Origin: Verrucomicrobium sp. BvORR034
Lineage (GTDB): Bacteria > Verrucomicrobiota > Verrucomicrobiia > Verrucomicrobiales > Verrucomicrobiaceae
NCBI RefSeq assembly: GCF_000739635.1
Contig: NZ_BATQ01000011.1
Span: 1 to 50,783, forward strand
Direction: 5' to 3'
DNA: 50,783 nucleotides
Both the position numbers and the translations under genes were made by a program. Shown in pieces: positions 41,535 to 50,699 of this stretch (position 1 is its first letter; each line of letters opens with the position of its first letter). The notes below the pieces were generated by a model. That model was not told the DNA's origin. It saw nothing but the letters and a program-made list of their open reading frames with translations, and searched no databases.

Positions 41535-41588
41535 GACACGCTCTGGGATCACGCTTCCGGGGCGGTGGAGGATGTGTATCATGGGCGG

Positions 41589-44027
41589 ATGCGCCTTGGC
41601 CAAGTCACACTCCATTTCCGGCATGTCACCTACGCGGGACTGGCGGCGTGGCTGCTGAACTCTGGCGGCCCGTTGCTGGCTCAAGACCTGGATTCCCGCC
41701 CGCGCATTCTCATCGAGACGGATGCTGGCGGAGATCCTGACGACGAGCAGTCACTGGTGCGATTCCTCGTCTATGCCAGCGAGTTCGACATAGAAGGCAT
41801 CATCGCCACCCGTAAAGAGGCCCGGGTAGGAGAGAACAAGAACCCGGTGCGGGATGGCTTGGGGATTGTGCAGGCGATGGTGCGCGCCTATGGCGAGTGT
41901 CATCCCAACCTCGTGTTGCATGATCTCCGCTTTCCTTCATCGGAAGCACTGCTCAAGACCTGTGTGGCGGGTTATCAGGATGCGGAAGACGGGGTAAATC
42001 TCATCATCACGGCTGTGGACAAGGATGACCGGAGACCCGTGTGGTTCTCCAACTGGGGAACGGACCGGGGCAGTGCTGAGAGCTGCCTGAAGCGGGCGCT
42101 GGACAAGGTGCTGAAGGAACGGGGACAGGAGGGGTATGCCAAGTTCAAGAACAAGCTGCGCCTGTGCTCCTCGGACCGGTTCGCGGAACATACTGCCACC
42201 TTGAAACCGGCCTTCCGTCGGTGGGTGGATACCAGCCAGCCTGAGCAGGAGGGGAAACGGTGGTACCACCAGTTTTCCCGGATCACGGCCCAGTCGGGAG
42301 GCTTCGACATTCAGCGGGATGTCATCCAGGATCACGGCCCGCTGGGGCGGCTCTACCCGACCAATACCAGCCTGCCGCAAAAAGAGGGGGACACCTCCCT
42401 GTTCTTGTACCTGGTACCCAATGGCCTCTCAGATCCCAATGAGCCCGGCTGGGGAGGCTGGGGCGGGAGGTTGGGGCAGAACCCGAACCACCCGGACAAA
42501 GCGTATTACTGGGCCAACGTGCAGGATACCTGGGAGGGGACGACGCATCGCGACCAGACGCTGGGGCGGTGGGCGGCCGACTTGCAGAACGACTTCAAGG
42601 CTCGTATGGACTGGTGTGTGGCGGATGCTTATGACAAGGCCAATCATGCGCCTATCCCGGTCCTGAATGGGAACGAGGGCAAAGGCGTGATGCATCTGGT
42701 GGTGCGTGAAGGGGACAAGGTGGAGCTGAGCGCCAAGGGCACCCGGGATCCTGATGGGCAACCTATTCGCATGGAATGGATGGTCTATCCTGAAGCCGGA
42801 ACGTATCGCGGCGAGGTGGTGCTTTCAGCGACGGAAGGCGGGCAGACAAGTTTCATCGCACCCAAGCCCGATCAGTATGGGGCTTGCACGATCCATGTCG
42901 TGCTGCGGCTGCAGGATCAGGGGACGCCTCCTTTGTGTGCCTATCGTCGTGCCGTAGTGGTGGTGGAAAGTCCACCTGCTCCTGCGGCCGGCGTGTTTCC
43001 GGGCAGTGAATGGGAAATGGCAACGCCGGAGTCCCAGGGGGTGCGTGGCGTGAAGCTGACAGAGGCAGTGCGCTACCTGGACAACTCCCTGGGCCAGGAC
43101 GGGGTGCGGGAACTGGTCATCATCCGCCATGGGAAGATGGTCTGGAAGGGGGCGGACATCGACAAGGTGCATGGCACGTGGTCGCTCACAAAGAGCTTCA
43201 CCAGCACCGTGATGGGTCTGCTCGTGGATGACGGCAAGTTCACGCCTGACACCCGGGTGGCAGTGGTGTTGCCAGAGATGGAGGCTCTCTATCCGGAACT
43301 CACCCTACGGCATTTCGCCACGATGACCTCGGGCTACCGTGCCCAGGGGGATGAGACGACGGGCAGCTACAAACATGGTCCGAGCAAGACACCGTTCATT
43401 CCGGGGGATCCGCTCTTTCGCCCGCCGGGCAGTCAGTTTGCCTATTGGGACTCAGCCATGAACCAGTTTGGCCATGTGCTCACCCGCATTGCCGGGGAGC
43501 CCATGGCGGAGGTATTCAAGCGCCGGATCGCGGATCCCATTGGGATGCACCCGGACCGTTGGAAATGGGGAAACCTGGGGCGAAAGGAGGGGCTGCTGAT
43601 GAACTGCGGTTCAGGAAATCGAGGTCAGTCGGTGCAGATCAGTGCAGGTGATCTGGCCCGCTTTGGCTGGTTGATGCGGAATGTTGGGCGCTGGGGCGAC
43701 AGGCAGTTGTTGAGCGCCAAATGGGTGGAGGAGGCGACCCGAGTGCAGGTGCCTGCCACGCTGCCATGGGGGCATGCGGAAGGCAGCGCCGATGGCAGGG
43801 GGTGCTATGGCTACAACTGGTGGATCAACGGTGTGCAGGCAGATGGTTCACTGAAATTCCCCCACGCCCCGGTGGGTGCCTATTGTGCCGCCGGGCACAA
43901 CAACAACCGTTGTTTTGTCATTCCACAGTGGGACATGGTGATCGTCCGATTGGGCCTTGACGGAGATTCGTCCGACATGGTGTGGAGTGATTTCCTAGAT
44001 CGTGTGGGAGAAGCGGTAGAGCGATGA
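41589..44027 (+). CDS. DUF1593 (nucleoside-hydrolase-like) protein fused to a serine beta-lactamase-like domain
   Basis: An 812-residue exported protein from the ATG at 41589 (a GTG at 41565 is possible). After a signal peptide, residues about 35-390 match the DUF1593/Sde182 nucleoside-hydrolase-like pattern: RILIETDAGGDPDDEQSLVR with the acidic metal-site cluster, IEGIIAT, and a WANVQDTWEGTTHRDQTLG block. A beta-rich linker follows (about 390-465). Residues about 475-805 form a class C beta-lactamase/DD-peptidase fold with the SxxK motif at Ser532-Lys535 (SLTKS), Tyr619 and a late GHNNN segment. Such fusions are uncommon; each half normally stands alone. The serine hydrolase may deacylate a product released by the first half. 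Confidence 0.87.
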   Translation: MRLGQVTLHFRHVTYAGLAAWLLNSGGPLLAQDLDSRPRILIETDAGGDPDDEQSLVRFLVYASEFDIEGIIATRKEARVGENKNPVRDGLGIVQAMVRAYGECHPNLVLHDLRFPSSEALLKTCVAGYQDAEDGVNLIITAVDKDDRRPVWFSNWGTDRGSAESCLKRALDKVLKERGQEGYAKFKNKLRLCSSDRFAEHTATLKPAFRRWVDTSQPEQEGKRWYHQFSRITAQSGGFDIQRDVIQDHGPLGRLYPTNTSLPQKEGDTSLFLYLVPNGLSDPNEPGWGGWGGRLGQNPNHPDKAYYWANVQDTWEGTTHRDQTLGRWAADLQNDFKARMDWCVADAYDKANHAPIPVLNGNEGKGVMHLVVREGDKVELSAKGTRDPDGQPIRMEWMVYPEAGTYRGEVVLSATEGGQTSFIAPKPDQYGACTIHVVLRLQDQGTPPLCAYRRAVVVVESPPAPAAGVFPGSEWEMATPESQGVRGVKLTEAVRYLDNSLGQDGVRELVIIRHGKMVWKGADIDKVHGTWSLTKSFTSTVMGLLVDDGKFTPDTRVAVVLPEMEALYPELTLRHFATMTSGYRAQGDETTGSYKHGPSKTPFIPGDPLFRPPGSQFAYWDSAMNQFGHVLTRIAGEPMAEVFKRRIADPIGMHPDRWKWGNLGRKEGLLMNCGSGNRGQSVQISAGDLARFGWLMRNVGRWGDRQLLSAKWVEEATRVQVPATLPWGHAEGSADGRGCYGYNWWINGVQADGSLKFPHAPVGAYCAAGHNNNRCFVIPQWDMVIVRLGLDGDSSDMVWSDFLDRVGEAVER

Positions 44028-44267: not shown

Positions 44268-45929
44268 TTAATCCTGTCTCTGTATCCGCGCCCACTCCAG
44301 CCCGGGCTGGTCCACGCGGAACTGCACCACGCGCCGCTGCTCCGCATCGGTCACATACACCGTGCACCCATCCGTGCCGCCGAAGCACAGGTTGGTCGGG
44401 CTCTTGCCCAGCACATCAATTTCCTGCAGCACTTTGCCCTGCGGGCTTAGCTTGACCACAGTGCCTTTGCCATGACGGGTGATGTAGAGGTTGCCTGCCA
44501 CATCGCAGCGCATGCCGTCGAAGCCATGGTCGGGGAATTCCTTGAGCAGACGCTTCTCGCCGAGGGTGCCATCGGTTTGGATGGGAAAGGCCCAGACCTT
44601 GCGCTGCACGCTTTCGTTCACGTACAGCGTTCTGCCATCGGGGCTGACGTCCAGACCGTTGGTGATGCCCATGTTGCTGGCCACCTTGGAAACTTTGCCT
44701 TCCCGGCTCACGTGCCAAAGCTGGCCAGTGCCGTCCTTCCAGGCCGGATCGCTGGCATAGAAGTCGCCTTCTGCAGTGATGGCGATATCGTTGGGCTGGT
44801 TCATGCCCGGTTCATTGGCCAAGACGGAGACGGCCTTGCTAGTGAGATCCACTTTGAGAACGTTGTGCTTCGTGTAATCCGCGACAAAGAAGCTTTTGCC
44901 ATCCCGACTGAAGCGGATGCCGTTGCCGATGCTCCCCTCAGGAAGTTTCACGAAGACCTCGGCTTTCCCGTCCGGACTCACTCTGCCAATGGTGCCCTGC
45001 TCCTTGAAGTTCACGGCATACAGGTTGCCCTGGTGATCGCAGGCCGGACCTTCAATGCCATCGGTGAAGCCATTGGGTTCGGTGAGGGGCGTGGTTTTGA
45101 AGAGGGGACTGGCAGCCACCGTTTGTTTCCTCTCCCGCATGAGTCTGGCCAGATACCTGGCCGTCTCATCCGCGATCACCTGGTAGCCAGCCTGGTTGGG
45201 GTGGCGGTCGCCATACCATCCCGGCAGGTCGCCCAGATGGGCATCCAGCTGATTGTCCATCACGACCACGGACTTGCCGTTGATGAAGGGCTTCACCAAC
45301 TCCTGAAACTTGTCCGGCACCTTCTCGATGGGATAACGCCGGTAGTTCAGCATGTTTGGGCCCTTTTTGAGCTCCTCCGCATAGCGAGGGTGAATGTCGA
45401 AGAGCGGCAGTCCTTCGGCTTCCGACACCTTTTTGTTGAGCTGATTGATCTGGATGACCCGCTCTTCCTCGCCGTAGGGGATCACTGTCATAACGATGAT
45501 CACGGCTTCTGGATGGTCGCGCTTGAGGCGCAAGACTAGTTCATGATAGTCCTTGGCGAAGTTTTCCGCGAACCCCTGCCGCCGGGCCTGGTCGTTGATG
45601 CCGTAGCGGATGAAGATGTAGTCGGCACCAGGGATCTTCGCGATCTCCTTGTCATATCGGCCGGAGTCCAGCAGTCGCTGGATGTACTCTCCACTGAGTC
45701 CCAGATTGATGACGTTCACGGGTTCGAGGTCTTTCTCCGCGGCCAGGAGGATGCTGATCACGTCCTCAAAGTGGGGGCCTTGAGGCCGCAGCATCTTTGG
45801 GATCTTCGCCTCGGTGGTGCTGTCACCCACCAGCAGGACCTGACGTTTGCCTTCATGGAGGGCGTAGGCCTGGGGCAGGCAGGCAAGCAGCAGACCGACG
45901 GCGAGCGGGAGATGGAGCAGGGGTTTCAT
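44268..45929 (-). CDS. SGNH hydrolase fused to an SMP-30/gluconolactonase propeller
   Basis: A 553-residue exported protein from the ATG at 45929 (45950 is an alternative). The signal is LPLAVGLLLACLPQAYA. The SGNH domain (about 28-255) has GDST with Ser37, YGINDQ and the Asp-His pair in GDRHPNQAGY. The second half (about 275-550) is a six-bladed SMP-30-like propeller: EGPACDHQGNLYAVN, NGIRFSRDGKSFFVADY, NQPNDIAITAEGDFYASDP, TNGLDVSPDGRTLYVNES and DGMRCDVAGNLYITRHGKG. Both domains act on sugar-type compounds, an esterase joined to a lactonase. The two activities in one chain would deacylate and then open a lactone; this is inference. Confidence 0.9.
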   Translation of the reverse strand: MKPLLHLPLAVGLLLACLPQAYALHEGKRQVLLVGDSTTEAKIPKMLRPQGPHFEDVISILLAAEKDLEPVNVINLGLSGEYIQRLLDSGRYDKEIAKIPGADYIFIRYGINDQARRQGFAENFAKDYHELVLRLKRDHPEAVIIVMTVIPYGEEERVIQINQLNKKVSEAEGLPLFDIHPRYAEELKKGPNMLNYRRYPIEKVPDKFQELVKPFINGKSVVVMDNQLDAHLGDLPGWYGDRHPNQAGYQVIADETARYLARLMRERKQTVAASPLFKTTPLTEPNGFTDGIEGPACDHQGNLYAVNFKEQGTIGRVSPDGKAEVFVKLPEGSIGNGIRFSRDGKSFFVADYTKHNVLKVDLTSKAVSVLANEPGMNQPNDIAITAEGDFYASDPAWKDGTGQLWHVSREGKVSKVASNMGITNGLDVSPDGRTLYVNESVQRKVWAFPIQTDGTLGEKRLLKEFPDHGFDGMRCDVAGNLYITRHGKGTVVKLSPQGKVLQEIDVLGKSPTNLCFGGTDGCTVYVTDAEQRRVVQFRVDQPGLEWARIQRQD

Positions 45930-46069
45930 GGCAAAAAAACGGCGCAACATGAAACCACGAGTCACAGCCAGCGTCACCGCAGGCAATGCCGGGATGTGGT
46001 GAATATGTGACAAAAAACCACGAGACTTTGCGCGCTAATAATCCATAGAATTTATATTAAACATATTTC

Positions 46070-46255: not shown

Positions 46256-48565
46256 ATGAAAACTTGTCCCACGGTCCTCCGTTTCTGCGCCTCGGCGCTG
46301 TTCCTGCCGCTTGCGATTGCGGCTCAAGACAATCCCCAACCCCCTGCCATGGATGCCACCGCGCACCGACAGGCGGTGGAAGGGGCTCGCAAGCGACTCC
46401 AGAACGCCTGGCGGGAGTTCGGGGAACGAAATGCCCGGGGGGAGATGGCCCCGGACATCTTTTCCCTGCGGGTGCAGCCCAAGATCCTCACCACCGGAGA
46501 GATGGAGGGCCTGATGAACCAGGCGCAGGCGGCGACTTTTCCCGAGCCGGAGGTGGTTCGATCCATCAATGGCAAGCTCAACGTCACCCTGAATGTCTTC
46601 AAGGCCCGCAACCAGATCGGTGCGGACCCCGTGTATCTCCGGTCCTACAACGGGAAGCTGGTGGGCCCCACGCTGCGCTGCCAGCCGGGGGACACACTCT
46701 ACATCACCGTGAAAAATGCCCTCGAACCCGAGCCGGGCATGGCGGACGTGATGAACACCCTGCATGGGTTTAACACCACGAATCTGCATACTCATGGGCT
46801 CCATGTGTCGCCTTCTGGCATCAGCGACAACGTGTTGCTGGAGATCCCACCCGGGGCGAATCAGAGCTACGAGATCGTCATCCCCAAGGACCACCCCGCA
46901 GGGACCTTCTGGTACCATGCCCACAAGCATGGCTCCACGGCAGCCAATGTGGGCAGCGGCATGTCCGGTGCTTTGATCATTGAAGGCGGTCTGGACACGG
47001 TGCCTGAGATTGCCCGCGCCCCACAGCGCGTCATGGTGCTGCAACAGATCCCGTATGTAAACAACGCCAGCAAGCCAGTCTGTCCGGCGATCTCCAAAGA
47101 CACCAACCTCACGGTAGGGGTGATCGAGGCCGAATACGCCGACTGTAGCTTTGGTCCACGGACCTGGGACAAGCTGGGGCGCTACACCACGATCAACGGG
47201 GTGAAACTGCCCGTGATCCGCATGCAGCCTGGCTCCGTGGAACGGTGGCGCTTGATCGACAGCGCCATTCGGGAGGTCATTCAACCGGAGCTGGTACGTG
47301 TGGATCACAGTGGGCAGAGCGCACCCTCGCGCTTGAACTTTCACGAGATTGCCGTGGATGGACTCGCGCTCGGGCGTGTCGCCGCGCGCTCCCAGCTGGA
47401 ATTATGGCCCGGCTACCGCTCGGACGTGCTCATTCAGGCACCACCGGTGGCGGGAGTGCAGTATGTGCTGCGGGATGCACGGGTGCCCGGAGGCGGCGTG
47501 ATCATTCCCGAGGAGCGTCGCTATCTTGCATTGGTGATCGTGGAAGGGCCTCTCAATCCCATGCCGCTGCCCACGGATGAGGCCGTGAAGCGGTTCCGAC
47601 TGCCTTCCATCGATCCCAAGCGGGTCACGGCGCGCCAGGCTGCCGCCTATGGGATCATCCCCAAAGGGGACGGCGTGGTGTTCACCATCGACAGGCAGCC
47701 GCTTGATTTCAACGAGGCGCGTCAGAACACCCTGGGAGAAGTGCAGGAGTGGACAGTTATTTCCAGGAACAACGTGGGACCGGTGAGCCATCCCTTTCAC
47801 ATTCATGTGAATCCATTCGAAATCTTCTCCATCCTGAATGAGCAGAGTGTGGAGCAGCTGGATCGAGACCCCAGAACCGGTGCGGTCCTGCCTGTCTGGC
47901 GGGACACCATCATCCTCAACGAGGGGTGGAAAGTGAGCTTCCGCACGGAGTACACCGACTTCGATGGGGTCTTTGTGCAGCACTGCCACATCCTGGACCA
48001 CGAGGATGAAGGCATGATGGAGCTGGTGGAGATCTCCAAGCCGCCAGCCCCCATGCCCATGGCAGACACTGGCAACATGGAGCCCAAACGGCTTGGTGCG
48101 CCGTATCCTGCGCCCGCCTGGTCACTGCCGGATGCCACCGGCAAGGTGCAGAAGTCAGCGGATTTACTGACCCGTCCCACGGTGCTCTTCTTCTATGAGG
48201 GCTTTGCCTGCCTGCGCTGCAACGAGCAGATGACGGCGCTGGTGGAAAAAGCGGAGGCCTTCCGCAAGCAAGGGGTGCAGGTCATTGGCATCAGCACCGA
48301 CTCCGTGGCAGACTTGGGCAAGGCTCTGGATGGCACGCCCTGCCCGTTCCCGCTGCTGGCAGATCCTGAGAAGCGTGTCTTCCGTTCCTATGGGTGCTAT
48401 GCGGACGGGCCCTTGCACGGCCTCTTCGTGCTGGATGCCTCCGGGAAGGTGCACTGGCAGAACGTGTCCATGACCCCCTACATGGATGTGGATGCCCTCC
48501 TGCGCGAAGCAGGGCAGGTGGCTGCACCGGCACGATCCGGCGCTGTGGCCAGCCGTCAGCCGTGA
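46256..48565 (+). CDS. Exported multicopper oxidase with C-terminal peroxiredoxin-like domain
   Basis: A 769-residue protein from the ATG at 46256, with a signal peptide (LRFCASALFLPLAIAA). The four copper motifs are intact: HTH at His178/His180, HAHKH at His221/223/225, HPFHIH at His512/515/517, and HCHILDHEDEGM (His576, Cys577, His578, His582, Met587), so a type 1 and a trinuclear site can form. Residues about 620-755 make a thioredoxin-fold AhpC/TSA-like domain: VLFFYEGFACLRCNEQM with Cys652-x-x-Cys655, then VIGISTDSVADLG and FPLLADPEKRVFRSYG. An oxidase fused to a peroxiredoxin-like domain is very unusual. It is followed by an exported tyrosinase. Confidence 0.93.
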   Translation: MKTCPTVLRFCASALFLPLAIAAQDNPQPPAMDATAHRQAVEGARKRLQNAWREFGERNARGEMAPDIFSLRVQPKILTTGEMEGLMNQAQAATFPEPEVVRSINGKLNVTLNVFKARNQIGADPVYLRSYNGKLVGPTLRCQPGDTLYITVKNALEPEPGMADVMNTLHGFNTTNLHTHGLHVSPSGISDNVLLEIPPGANQSYEIVIPKDHPAGTFWYHAHKHGSTAANVGSGMSGALIIEGGLDTVPEIARAPQRVMVLQQIPYVNNASKPVCPAISKDTNLTVGVIEAEYADCSFGPRTWDKLGRYTTINGVKLPVIRMQPGSVERWRLIDSAIREVIQPELVRVDHSGQSAPSRLNFHEIAVDGLALGRVAARSQLELWPGYRSDVLIQAPPVAGVQYVLRDARVPGGGVIIPEERRYLALVIVEGPLNPMPLPTDEAVKRFRLPSIDPKRVTARQAAAYGIIPKGDGVVFTIDRQPLDFNEARQNTLGEVQEWTVISRNNVGPVSHPFHIHVNPFEIFSILNEQSVEQLDRDPRTGAVLPVWRDTIILNEGWKVSFRTEYTDFDGVFVQHCHILDHEDEGMMELVEISKPPAPMPMADTGNMEPKRLGAPYPAPAWSLPDATGKVQKSADLLTRPTVLFFYEGFACLRCNEQMTALVEKAEAFRKQGVQVIGISTDSVADLGKALDGTPCPFPLLADPEKRVFRSYGCYADGPLHGLFVLDASGKVHWQNVSMTPYMDVDALLREAGQVAAPARSGAVASRQP

Positions 48566-48573
48566 AAATCCAC

Positions 48574-48600
48574 CCTCGGGGCAGATGCTCTGTCCCGGGG
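48574..48600 (+). terminator. Strong hairpin between oxidase and tyrosinase genes
   Basis: A 12-bp stem (48574-48585 with 48589-48600, two G-U wobbles) with a three-base loop lies just after the oxidase stop and is followed by a T-containing AT-rich tract. It could end or attenuate transcription, giving lower tyrosinase expression, or protect the transcript end. It is 46 bp before the tyrosinase start. Confidence 0.55.
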
Positions 48601-48645
48601 TAAATCTATTTTCAAACTGTTAGAACCACGAACTCGTCATTCCTC

Positions 48646-50202
48646 ATGTCTATTCCCAATACCTCCCGTCGTCGCTTCCTCGTCACCGCCGGTGCGGCTG
48701 CCGCCAGTGCCAGCTGGTCCTTTGGCCAGGAACCCGCCCAGGCTGCTGCGGCGAGATACCACCGGCTGAATCTGCAGAATCCTGCTGCGGCGCCCTTCCT
48801 GGAAAGCTACAAAAAAGCCATCACGGCCATGCTGCAGCTCCCGCCCTCGGATGCGCGCAACTGGTATCGGAACGCGTTCATCCACACCCTGGACTGCCCG
48901 CACGGGAACTGGTGGTTCGTCGTCTGGCATCGCGGCTTCACCGGCTGGTTTGAGCGGACCGTGCGTGAACTGAGCGGAGATGCCAACTTCGCCTTCCCCT
49001 ATTGGGACTGGACGGCGCTTCCGCAGCTGCCGGACTCGTTCTTCAACGGTGTGCTGGATCCCAACAACCCGGCCTACATTGCCAGCTACAACGAGTTCTT
49101 CGCCCAGCTCTCCAATCCCATGAGCGCACTGTGGAACTCTTTCTCCACGGCGCAGCTCCAGCAGATGCGGAACCGGGGATTCCGCTCGGTGAATGATGTC
49201 TGGCAGGCGGTGCGGGACAGCCCCATGTTCTTTCCTAGAGGCCGCGCCCGCACCCTCACACGGCAGAACCCGGGATTCGATGCCACCACCCGCCGGGCCG
49301 TGTCCATCGGCACCATTCGCAGCGCCCTCGCTCCGACGGACTTCATCAGTTTCGGCAGTGGCAAGACCGCCAACCACAGCGGCAGCGCCACGCAGGGCAT
49401 CCTGGAGAGCCAGCCCCACAACAACGTGCACAACAACATCGGTGGCTTCATGCAGGATCTGCTGTCTCCCACCGACCCGGTGTTCTTCGCTCACCACTCC
49501 AACATTGACCGGCTCTGGGACGTGTGGACACGCAAGCAACAGCGTCTTGGGCTGCCTACGCTGCCCACAGGAGCGGACCTGCCACCCTGGGCCAATGAAT
49601 CGTTCCTCTTTTTCATCGGGCCGGATGGCAAGCCGGTGGCGAAGAACAAAGCTGGCGACTACGCCACGATTGGCGACTTCAACTATGACTACGAGCCCGG
49701 CTCTGGTGAGACCGTGATCCCGGCTGCCACTCGGCCTGGGGACATGAACAACAAGGTGTGGCTCGGCACCCTCGGGGCATCTGCCCTCAATCTCGGAGCC
49801 TCCGCCCGCGCTGAGGTAATGGTGCCGCAGGCCGTGCCAGAGGCGGCGATGAAGGAGGATGGCCCTGCCGTTTTCGCCAAGATCACCATCGAGCCGATGG
49901 CGGACACCAAGGGAGTGGAGTTCCACGTGCTGGTCAATGCGCCAGAAGGGGCCAAGCAGGTGGATCTGGACTCGCCCAGCTTTGCCGGGACCTTCAGCAT
50001 CTTCGGCGCCCGACTCGGGGGCCATGAAAATCAGCCCCTCAGCTTCCTCATGCCGCTGACGGAGGCCGTGCAGAAGCTGACGGAGGCCAACGAACTCAAG
50101 CCGGGCCAGCCGCTGCGGGTGCAGGTGGTGGCAGAAAGGAAAGGCGTGAATTTGACGCCTTTGCAGGCTAAGGTGTCAGAGATTTCAGTGGGCACCTTCT
50201 AA
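48646..50202 (+). CDS. Tat-exported tyrosinase/polyphenol oxidase
   Basis: A 518-residue type 3 copper oxidase with a twin-arginine signal (SRRRFLVTAGAAAASA). The CuA ligands are His80, His86 and His95 (IHTLDCPHG through VWHRGF); Cys84 is placed to form the Cys-His thioether known from plant catechol oxidases. The CuB ligands are His258 and His262 in PHNNVHNN and a His in FFAHHSNIDRLW (283/284). A C-terminal domain (about 370-518) resembles the plug domain of plant-type enzymes and may shield the site until removed. Tat export suits a folded copper enzyme. It should oxidise phenols to quinones. Confidence 0.93.
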   Translation: MSIPNTSRRRFLVTAGAAAASASWSFGQEPAQAAAARYHRLNLQNPAAAPFLESYKKAITAMLQLPPSDARNWYRNAFIHTLDCPHGNWWFVVWHRGFTGWFERTVRELSGDANFAFPYWDWTALPQLPDSFFNGVLDPNNPAYIASYNEFFAQLSNPMSALWNSFSTAQLQQMRNRGFRSVNDVWQAVRDSPMFFPRGRARTLTRQNPGFDATTRRAVSIGTIRSALAPTDFISFGSGKTANHSGSATQGILESQPHNNVHNNIGGFMQDLLSPTDPVFFAHHSNIDRLWDVWTRKQQRLGLPTLPTGADLPPWANESFLFFIGPDGKPVAKNKAGDYATIGDFNYDYEPGSGETVIPAATRPGDMNNKVWLGTLGASALNLGASARAEVMVPQAVPEAAMKEDGPAVFAKITIEPMADTKGVEFHVLVNAPEGAKQVDLDSPSFAGTFSIFGARLGGHENQPLSFLMPLTEAVQKLTEANELKPGQPLRVQVVAERKGVNLTPLQAKVSEISVGTF

Positions 50203-50240
50203 CCGGGGGAGCGCCTCCTGGATGGACCTCTTGTTCCGGT

Positions 50241-50699
50241 ATGTGGATGCAAGCCTCATTTCTCACGATCCTGGCAGGGTTGGGGGTGACTTGTTTCCTC
50301 ATTCCGGCATGCGGGAGGTCGTCGTCCGAGACCCCGCCTCAAGCTGTGAACGAGTCTTCTCCAGAAGGAAAACTGCTGCTCACCCTGCCTCGCGCAAGGG
50401 AGGCGGATGAGGCCGTGGCTGTGCGTATCACGGTCGGCACCATGGCCAAAGGTGCCCGCATCATCGTGAAGACGGCTGAGGGCGACGTGGTGGGGGCGGT
50501 GGCACCCTTTGGTGTGCTGCCCGGCCGGAAGGCCGGCTCTTTCATGGTACCAGTGCCGGTGGCAGCTGTGAAGGACGGCAAGGTGAGCCTGCAACTGGAG
50601 GTGGAAGAGTCGACTGCTGGGAAAACCCGTGCCCCGACGAAGGCGGAGGTGGAGGCGGCAAACCTGGAACTCATGCCAGTGAGCGGCACGCCGGAGTAG
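50241..50699 (+). CDS. Small lipoprotein of unknown function
   Basis: A 152-residue protein whose N-terminus (MWMQASFLTILAGLGVTCFL) leads to a lipobox I-P-A-C24. The mature part is a single beta-rich domain (EAVAVRITVGTMAKGARIIV, GVLPGRKAGSFMVPVPVAAV) like a small immunoglobulin-type fold. It has no Cys or His cluster that would suggest metal transfer. It begins 38 bp after the tyrosinase stop on the same strand, so it may be a docking partner for the tyrosinase; plain hypothetical lipoprotein is the safe label. Confidence 0.72.
   Translation: MWMQASFLTILAGLGVTCFLIPACGRSSSETPPQAVNESSPEGKLLLTLPRAREADEAVAVRITVGTMAKGARIIVKTAEGDVVGAVAPFGVLPGRKAGSFMVPVPVAAVKDGKVSLQLEVEESTAGKTRAPTKAEVEAANLELMPVSGTPE

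What the first reader, a model, noticed from the sequence alone, without database searches (positions are those of the whole stretch)
46256..50699. Multicopper oxidase-peroxiredoxin fusion in a phenol-oxidising operon
One exported chain has all four copper motifs of a laccase-like oxidase and a C-terminal thioredoxin-fold domain with CLRC. A Tat-exported tyrosinase and a lipoprotein follow. Established: laccases and tyrosinases both oxidise phenols, and peroxiredoxins reduce peroxides. Inferred: the fused domain reduces peroxide or quinone made at the same site, giving a self-protecting melanin or lignin-type oxidation module.
Basis: partly seen in the sequence, partly recalled or inferred. 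Interest (0 to 1): 0.78.

Follow-up and report, generated by a model that had tools for sequence, protein, structure and literature searches.

The report
Laccase with built-in CxxC redoxin domain
A bacterial copper enzyme that probably helps make melanin-like pigment has a second, thiol-based redox domain attached to it; in distant relatives the same domain and the partner pigment enzyme are all strung into one giant protein, which suggests they work as a unit, but the attached domain does not have the active site of a peroxide-removing enzyme.

Summary
Window 46256-48565 encodes one exported 769-aa chain: a laccase-type multicopper oxidase (MCO) with all copper motifs plus a C-terminal peroxiredoxin-fold domain (CLRC). 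A Tat tyrosinase and a small probable lipoprotein follow. The tyrosinase is the counterpart of the crystallised V. spinosum enzyme. All three proteins match the S. meliloti mcoA-mepA cluster, whose double deletion abolishes melanin, so a copper-dependent melanin/phenol-oxidation cassette is well supported. The peroxide-protection idea is not: in 9 of 9 fusions the peroxiredoxin Pro, Thr and Arg are E/K/R, Cys and His. 26 of 26 long-chain redoxin relatives share CxxC+His, while 3 of 3 ordinary peroxiredoxins of this genome keep the canonical residues. The fusion was found in 9 genomes (Verrucomicrobiota, Planctomycetota); the 8 tested form one MCO clade. Tyrosinase is adjacent, nearby or in the same chain in 8; the ninth contig ends. 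Two genomes carry MCO, redoxin and tyrosinase in one 1552-1822-aa chain; another has redoxin fused to tyrosinase without a nearby MCO. I read the redoxin as a thiol/copper-handling domain serving the copper oxidases (inferred, untested). New variant of a known cassette.

The parts
46256..48565 (+). Exported multicopper oxidase-redoxin fusion, 769 aa (Sec-type signal sequence at the N-terminus, read from sequence)
46745..46984 (+). Cu-oxidase_3 match (residues 164-243) with HTHGLH (46787-46804) and HAH (46916-46924)
47678..48028 (+). Cu-oxidase_2 match (residues 475-591) with HPFHIH (47789-47806) and HCHILDHEDEGMM (47981-48019); T1 Cys577, Met587 in the axial position
   Evidence: ligand roles from general MCO knowledge
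48107..48457 (+). AhpC-TSA/redoxin domain (residues 618-734), peroxiredoxin fold, non-canonical active site
48209..48220 (+). CxxC (C652-L-R-C655); C655 in the peroxidatic position, C652 in the place of the peroxiredoxin Thr
48416..48418 (+). His721, in the place of the peroxiredoxin Arg; His in 9 of 9 fusions and 26 of 26 long-chain redoxin relatives
48646..50202 (+). Tat-type tyrosinase, counterpart of V. spinosum vsTyr (PDB 8BBQ/8BBR)
50241..50699 (+). Small probable lipoprotein; mature part predicted as all-beta, weakly like the C-terminal shielding domain of polyphenol oxidases; a homologue follows the mepA-type tyrosinase in Sinorhizobium

Best explanation
This is the MCO arm of a copper-dependent melanin/phenol-oxidation cassette (MCO, tyrosinase, small all-beta protein), in a variant where the MCO has gained a periplasmic CxxC+His redoxin domain. 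Both copper oxidases act outside the cytoplasm on phenols; o-quinones and radicals polymerise into melanin-like material. The redoxin domain has a peroxiredoxin fold but not its active site. I propose that it is a thiol-disulfide or copper-handling domain that keeps copper-site cysteines reduced (the T1 Cys577 of the linked MCO above all) or hands copper on to the linked or neighbouring oxidase, possibly recharged by a DsbD-type membrane reductase. Shown here: fusion, gene linkage, the active-site change, one clade, single-chain relatives, a redoxin-tyrosinase chain, a DsbD-type protein in the nine fusion genomes. Shown elsewhere for homologues: vsTyr activity, and MCO plus tyrosinase needed for melanin. 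Inferred: the chemistry of the redoxin domain, its targets and its recharging.
For: Cassette: tyrosinase adjacent, nearby or in-chain in 8 of 9 fusion loci; among 57 relatives the fusion is in 5 genomes and tyrosinase in the same 5; MCO, tyrosinase and third protein match the S. meliloti cluster, 98.6% identical to that of strain GR4, where the double mutant is non-melanogenic. Unit: two chains of 1822 and 1552 aa join MCO, redoxin and tyrosinase and align at 34% over 1560 columns. Redoxin goes with either oxidase: a 954-aa chain joins redoxin (CIHC, HG) to tyrosinase, with no MCO in the 13 kb read. Not a peroxiredoxin site: P to E/K/R, T to C, R to H in 9/9; P, T, R also absent in 26/26 long-chain relatives. 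Recharging feasible: DsbD_TM family in 9 of 9 fusion genomes. Copper hint: in one genome of the order of G433 a Sco1-like protein is the third gene after the tyrosinase.
Against: No direct evidence of thiol or copper chemistry. Recombinant vsTyr core is highly active by itself (PMC10526336, passage), and S. meliloti McoA has no redoxin domain by Pfam, so the domain is not generally required. The thioether-type Cys of vsTyr (Cys84) is present in the 5 separate tyrosinases of fusion loci that I read but absent in the 3 tyrosinases that share a chain with a redoxin (G024, L037, G857), so that Cys is unlikely to be the redoxin's general target; in G857 neither it nor a nearby MCO is present. The Sco1-like neighbour is a single case, just under Pfam's cut-off (20.9 vs 22.8 bits). 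DsbD-type proteins are common (10 of 14 control genomes).
Confidence: 0.45

Rival explanations
1. One reading: the fused domain is a peroxidase or quinone reductase that protects the oxidases and the cell from peroxide or o-quinone made on the spot.
For: Peroxiredoxin fold (Z 20.8) and family match; a LodA-like protein, of a family whose members release H2O2 (PMC4417212, start of abstract), lies in one fusion locus. Some CxxC peroxiredoxin-like proteins of eukaryotes reduce peroxides or endoperoxides (recalled). Thiols react readily with quinones (general knowledge). It needs no cysteine in the partner enzyme.
Against: Pro, Thr and Arg of the peroxiredoxin site absent in 9/9 fusions while 3/3 ordinary peroxiredoxins of the same genome keep them; laccase and tyrosinase normally yield water; no LodA relative found in the window.
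Confidence: 0.22
2. Copper-driven dithiol oxidase: electrons run from the CxxC dithiol to T1 copper and O2, so the fusion makes disulfides in partner proteins (a copper analogue of flavin sulfhydryl oxidases).
For: Covalent pairing of a dithiol domain with a four-copper O2-reducing enzyme in 9 genomes; both domains under purifying selection in the one pair compared.
Against: One-electron thiol oxidation by T1 copper is chemically awkward (general knowledge); a redoxin-tyrosinase chain without a nearby MCO exists; the recurring genomic partner is a phenol oxidase.
Confidence: 0.08
3. The redoxin is a docking or folding module (holding MCO and tyrosinase together, or at a membrane complex) and its cysteines form a structural or regulatory disulfide.
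For: Single-chain versions place it between the two oxidases; G024's copy is so diverged that Pfam does not report it.
Against: CxxC and His kept even in that diverged copy and in 26 of 26 long-chain relatives with other partners.
Confidence: 0.2

Closest known systems
Sinorhizobium meliloti mcoA-(C770_GR4pB024)-mepA melanin cluster (PMC7010606: passages and section 19 read)
   Same: Homologous MCO, tyrosinase and small third protein; deletion of either oxidase lowers melanin, deletion of both abolishes it; copper-dependent; same gene order, with a homologue of the window's third gene after mepA
   Different: MCO without redoxin domain; has a WTYRSF-type small gene between MCO and tyrosinase that the window lacks; on plasmids
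V. spinosum tyrosinase vsTyr, PDB 8BBQ/8BBR (PMC10526336: abstract, section 13 and passages read)
   Same: Window tyrosinase is its close counterpart; the G003 tyrosinase matches the crystal chain at every aligned position but the first, and the fusion gene is its upstream neighbour
   Different: The words multicopper and operon do not occur in that paper's main text
LodA/GoxA group ID operons with tyrosinase, MCO and a small gene (PMC4417212: passages read)
   Same: Same set LodA, tyrosinase, MCO, small protein; G035 carries it with the redoxin-fused MCO
   Different: No redoxin fusion mentioned in the passages seen; window locus has no LodA
Marinomonas mediterranea PpoA laccase, PpoB1 tyrosinase and copper-transfer protein PpoB2 (PMC2855505: passages read)
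   Same: Laccase plus tyrosinase, with a dedicated copper-transfer protein for the tyrosinase
   Different: Laccase gene not in the tyrosinase operon; the copper-transfer protein is a putative transmembrane COG5486 protein
Peroxiredoxin family (Bcp/PrxQ, AhpC/Prx1)
   Same: Fold and cysteine in peroxidatic position
   Different: Pro, Thr, Arg of the active site replaced
CxxC peroxiredoxin-like proteins (PRX-like2/PRXL2, SelL-related); recalled, plus sub-threshold Pfam AhpC-TSA_2 and NCBIfam SelL_rel_redox hits
   Same: CxxC with the second Cys at the peroxidatic position, triad lost (recalled)
   Different: Scores below both curated cut-offs; exported and fused to a copper oxidase here

Membership tests
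Multicopper oxidase (three-domain, laccase-like) | Cu-oxidase_3 and Cu-oxidase_2 domains | tested here: met
Multicopper oxidase (three-domain, laccase-like) | Four copper motifs with ten His and one Cys | tested here: met
   invariant in the four-row alignment A1
Multicopper oxidase (three-domain, laccase-like) | Oxidises phenols with O2 | not testable with these tools
   assay needed
Peroxiredoxin | Peroxiredoxin fold | tested here: met
   pLDDT 89.1; Z 20.8, rmsd 1.8, 144 aligned to 3hjp
Peroxiredoxin | Peroxidatic Cys | tested here: met
   C655 aligns with it
Peroxiredoxin | PxxxT/S before the Cys | tested here: not met
   E648 and C652; 0 of 9 fusions have P or T/S there
Peroxiredoxin | Active-site Arg | tested here: not met
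   H721; 0 of 9 have Arg
Peroxiredoxin | Peroxidase activity | not testable with these tools
   assay needed
Tyrosinase with C-terminal shielding domain (vsTyr type) | Type-3 copper domain, Tat signal, C-terminal extension | tested here: met
   Tat motif read from sequence and PMC10526336
mcoA-mepA melanin cluster | Homologous MCO and tyrosinase next to each other | tested here: met
mcoA-mepA melanin cluster | Small WTYRSF-type gene between them | tested here: not met
   80-base gap; no relative in the window; present in fusion locus G035 and as a domain in G024
mcoA-mepA melanin cluster | Makes melanin | not tested
   no experiment on the window organism
SCO1/SenC copper chaperone | Match to SCO1-SenC family | tested here: not met
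   window protein not matched at E<=0.001
SCO1/SenC copper chaperone | CxxxC plus distal His binding copper (recalled) | tested here: inconclusive
   CxxC, not CxxxC, plus a conserved His; copper binding not testable

The most novel reading that the evidence does not exclude
The CxxC+His redoxin is a new kind of built-in copper chaperone/thiol reductase for copper oxidases: a peroxiredoxin fold whose catalytic Arg and Thr were exchanged for His and Cys, moved between laccase, tyrosinase and laccase-tyrosinase chains as a self-maturation domain, ending in one polypeptide that holds both a laccase and a tyrosinase.
Probability: 0.2. Interest if true: 0.72.

Novelty: new variant of a known kind. 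Interest (0 to 1): 0.5.

Why it matters
The neighbour of a crystallised tyrosinase turns out to be a laccase with a built-in dithiol domain, and relatives carry laccase, redoxin and tyrosinase in one chain. That is strong natural evidence that the two phenol oxidases and the redoxin work together, it puts vsTyr into a melanin-type cassette with a genetically tested homologue, and it makes the question of how exported copper oxidases get reduced thiols and copper testable on one polypeptide. It also corrects a name: AhpC/TSA annotation here does not by itself mean peroxidase.

Tried and rejected
Peroxidase by family name: rejected as default because the active-site residues are missing, though activity is not excluded. 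Frame artefact or chance read-through: rejected, 9 genomes and low dN/dS. G002 frame break as evidence for two proteins: rejected; it lies inside the MCO part in a G run and is probably a draft error (inferred). vsTyr Cys84 as the redoxin's general target: weakened, absent in all 3 tyrosinases that share a chain with a redoxin. Anti-phage role: no PADLOC match for the three window proteins or the WTYRSF protein of G035. Promoter scan: one site, on the other strand, as many as chance; terminator-like sites 8 against 3.3 expected, one of them in the MCO-tyrosinase gap, none after the third gene. Papers: searches (fusion terms; MCO or laccase with tyrosinase) listed no title or abstract start naming an MCO-redoxin fusion; searches show only the first 15 of 112, 12 of 24 and 6 of 32 papers, and the library lacks most subscription papers, so this is no proof of absence. 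Third protein: Foldseek gave no match at E<=0.001; the likeness to polyphenol-oxidase C-terminal domains rests on Z about 7, tied with unrelated rows (11 of the first 14 rows are type-3 copper proteins by my reading, not independent), and a 77% profile match over 61 columns: weak. Fold rows for other families (SCO, PRXL2) did not appear among the 50 shown, which excludes nothing.

Counts and dropped rows: one search had four standalone hits; one, not a peroxiredoxin, was dropped. The automatic alignment there misplaced the Arg of the three controls; I read it by eye from the printed rows and from the PDB alignment. The 26 long-chain relatives are loci L007-L030 (L031, of the same kind of hit, was not taken) plus L138 and L139; Pfam found TPR repeats over cut-off in 2 of 3 such proteins checked. 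Tree: 83 rows; L096 skipped for short coverage; the broken G002 copy left out. Of 80 loci, 4 are fusions; 21 of the other 76 have a tyrosinase in the stretch held, some stretches being cut by contig ends.
Full report
WHAT IS THERE. The window (a whole 50,783-base contig, G000:C190) ends with three genes on the + strand, spaced 80 and 38 bases. The first, 46256-48565, is one open frame of 769 aa with Cu-oxidase_3, Cu-oxidase_2 and AhpC-TSA domains and all MCO copper motifs. The MCO part is nearest among solved structures to laccases, the Thermus thermophilus MCO 2xu9 among them (E 7e-47 to 1e-44). The second is a Tat-type tyrosinase, the third a small probable lipoprotein. Co-transcription is likely from spacing but not shown; a terminator-like site lies in the first gap.

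ORGANISM. The genome lies in one genus with G003, whose tyrosinase matches the V. spinosum crystal chain 8BBQ at every aligned position but the first, and with G002, whose contig length equals that of Verrucomicrobium sp. BvORR106 NZ_BATR01000018.1. So the fusion gene is the upstream neighbour of the studied tyrosinase vsTyr.

THE REDOXIN DOMAIN. AlphaFold2 on five sequences gives mean pLDDT 89.1, pTM 0.85. VIA-align's best rows are peroxiredoxins (3hjp Z 20.8, rmsd 1.8, 144 aligned). Sequence alignment to human peroxiredoxin-2 puts E648 at the active-site Pro, C652 at the Thr, C655 at the peroxidatic Cys and H721 at the Arg. In 9 of 9 fusions the Pro place holds E (3), K (5) or R (1), the Thr place Cys, the Arg place His followed by Gly. 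The same CxxC and His are found in 26 of 26 long-chain redoxin relatives (24 from related genomes, 2 from this genome); the three read in full are about 800 aa, two of them with TPR repeats by Pfam. Three of three ordinary peroxiredoxins of this genome keep PxxxTxxC and Arg. So this is a peroxiredoxin-fold domain of a CxxC+His type. That Pro, Thr, Cys and Arg make the peroxiredoxin site is taken from PMC5022050 (passages).

HOW WIDESPREAD. Nine genomes in all: window, G002, G003, G024, G035, G293, L036, L037, L038. In an MCO tree of 83 rows the 8 fusions used form one clade (SH-aLRT 98), with Verrucomicrobiota and Planctomycetota intermixed, which suggests transfer between them. No fusion turned up outside these two phyla among the 80 loci; other phyla were not searched genome by genome.

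LINK TO TYROSINASE. Directly downstream in window, G002, G003, L036, G293; third gene downstream in G035; in the same chain in G024 and L037; L038's contig ends 623 bases past the fusion. That is 8 of 9. No tyrosinase was found in the held L038 genome, a result against a strict rule. Among 57 relatives tyrosinase occurs in 5, the same 5 that have the fusion; three of these are one genus. Of 76 non-fused MCO relatives, 21 also have a tyrosinase nearby, so the MCO-tyrosinase link is wider, and probably older, than the redoxin fusion.

SINGLE CHAINS. G024 has one frame of 1822 aa: a WTYRSF-type domain, MCO, CxxC domain, tyrosinase, repeat-like tail; L037 has one of 1552 aa without the first domain. 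They align at 34% over 1560 columns. In G857, of the same family as L037's genome, a 954-aa chain joins a redoxin (CIHC, NHG) to the tyrosinase, and no MCO was found in the 13 kb around it. The redoxin thus goes with either copper oxidase.

FUNCTION OF THE CASSETTE. S. meliloti carries, on accessory plasmids, MCO, a 130-aa protein, tyrosinase and a 109-aa protein. MCO, tyrosinase and the last match the window's three proteins (E-values are for a four-sequence search). The same stretch in strain GR4's plasmid is 98.6% identical. There both genes contribute to melanin, the double mutant makes none, and it is more sensitive to Myxococcus predation (PMC7010606). Homologous LodA-type operons with tyrosinase, MCO and a small gene were noted in PMC4417212 (passages); G035 is such a locus, with LodA and a LodB-like flavoprotein. 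No LodA, DJ-1 or WTYRSF relative was found in the window.

MECHANISM. Most likely: tyrosinase and MCO oxidise phenols outside the cytoplasm; the redoxin handles thiols or copper for them. The MCO needs a reduced T1 Cys577 (general knowledge). vsTyr has Cys84 bonded to His86 near CuA (PMC10526336), but that Cys, present in the five separate tyrosinases of fusion loci that I read, is absent in the three that share a chain with a redoxin, which speaks against it as the general target. A DsbD-type membrane domain is in 9 of 9 fusion genomes but also in 10 of 14 controls. A Sco1-like protein as third gene after a tyrosinase in G938 is a hint, not proof. Peroxide or quinone removal is less likely but not excluded.

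THIRD PROTEIN. Its family (window, V. spinosum, BvORR106, Sinorhizobium, Nitrosovibrio) sits beside tyrosinase. Model pLDDT 81.9, all-beta; weakly like polyphenol-oxidase C-terminal domains (Z 7.3; profile 77%). It may be a detached shielding or folding domain. The Sinorhizobium version has no evident signal sequence (read).

VERDICT. Real, conserved, and a new variant of a known melanin-type cassette. The bold part, a copper-oxidase self-maturation domain, is untested.

Noticed in passing
L142:6023-8884 (G857:C106): Exported 954-aa chain joins a CxxC redoxin directly to a tyrosinase and a repeat-like tail, with no MCO in the 13 kb read.
   Followed up: partly
L149:4342-5076 (G938:C265): Sco1-like protein, third gene after a tyrosinase (Sco1 structure E 4e-6; Pfam just under cut-off).
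   Followed up: partly
L131, L132, L133, L138, L139 and loci L007-L030: Family of long proteins (about 800 aa in those read in full, some with TPR repeats) with a C-terminal CxxC+His redoxin, several per genome in this group; function unknown.
   Followed up: partly
L034:7972-8598, L035 (N-terminus of the 1822-aa chain), L058, L061, L072, L079, L081, L083, L101, L106, L107, L150:7657-8046: Small WTYRSF-type protein, recurring beside these MCOs and tyrosinases; no Pfam match in the two copies scanned (G035, S. meliloti). Probably the unnamed small gene of LodA group ID operons and C770_GR4pB024 of S. meliloti (inferred from position).
   Followed up: partly
L034:891-8598 (G035:C6): Fusion locus with DJ-1/PfpI protein, tyrosinase, LodA-like quinoprotein and a flavoprotein of LodB type.
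   Followed up: partly
window 50241-50699: Third protein may be a detached, membrane-anchored version of the tyrosinase C-terminal shielding domain; a homologue in Sinorhizobium lacks an evident signal sequence.
   Followed up: partly
L035, L037, L142 against window, L032, L036, L128, L034: The thioether-type Cys near CuA is present in separate tyrosinases of fusion loci but absent in the tyrosinases that share a chain with a redoxin.
   Followed up: partly
window 41565-44027 (+): 820-aa protein joining Sde182 nucleoside-hydrolase-like and C-terminal domains with a beta-lactamase-family serine hydrolase domain.
   Followed up: no
window 44268-45935 (-): Protein joining a GDSL lipase/acylhydrolase domain and an SMP-30/gluconolactonase domain.
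   Followed up: no
L037 (CAMDPK010000028.1): MAG named Candidatus Kuenenia stuttgartiensis is 7.4 Mb in the held genome; by their numbers several genomes of its family draw were issued in the planctomycete draw, so the phylum fits but the species label looks doubtful.
   Followed up: partly
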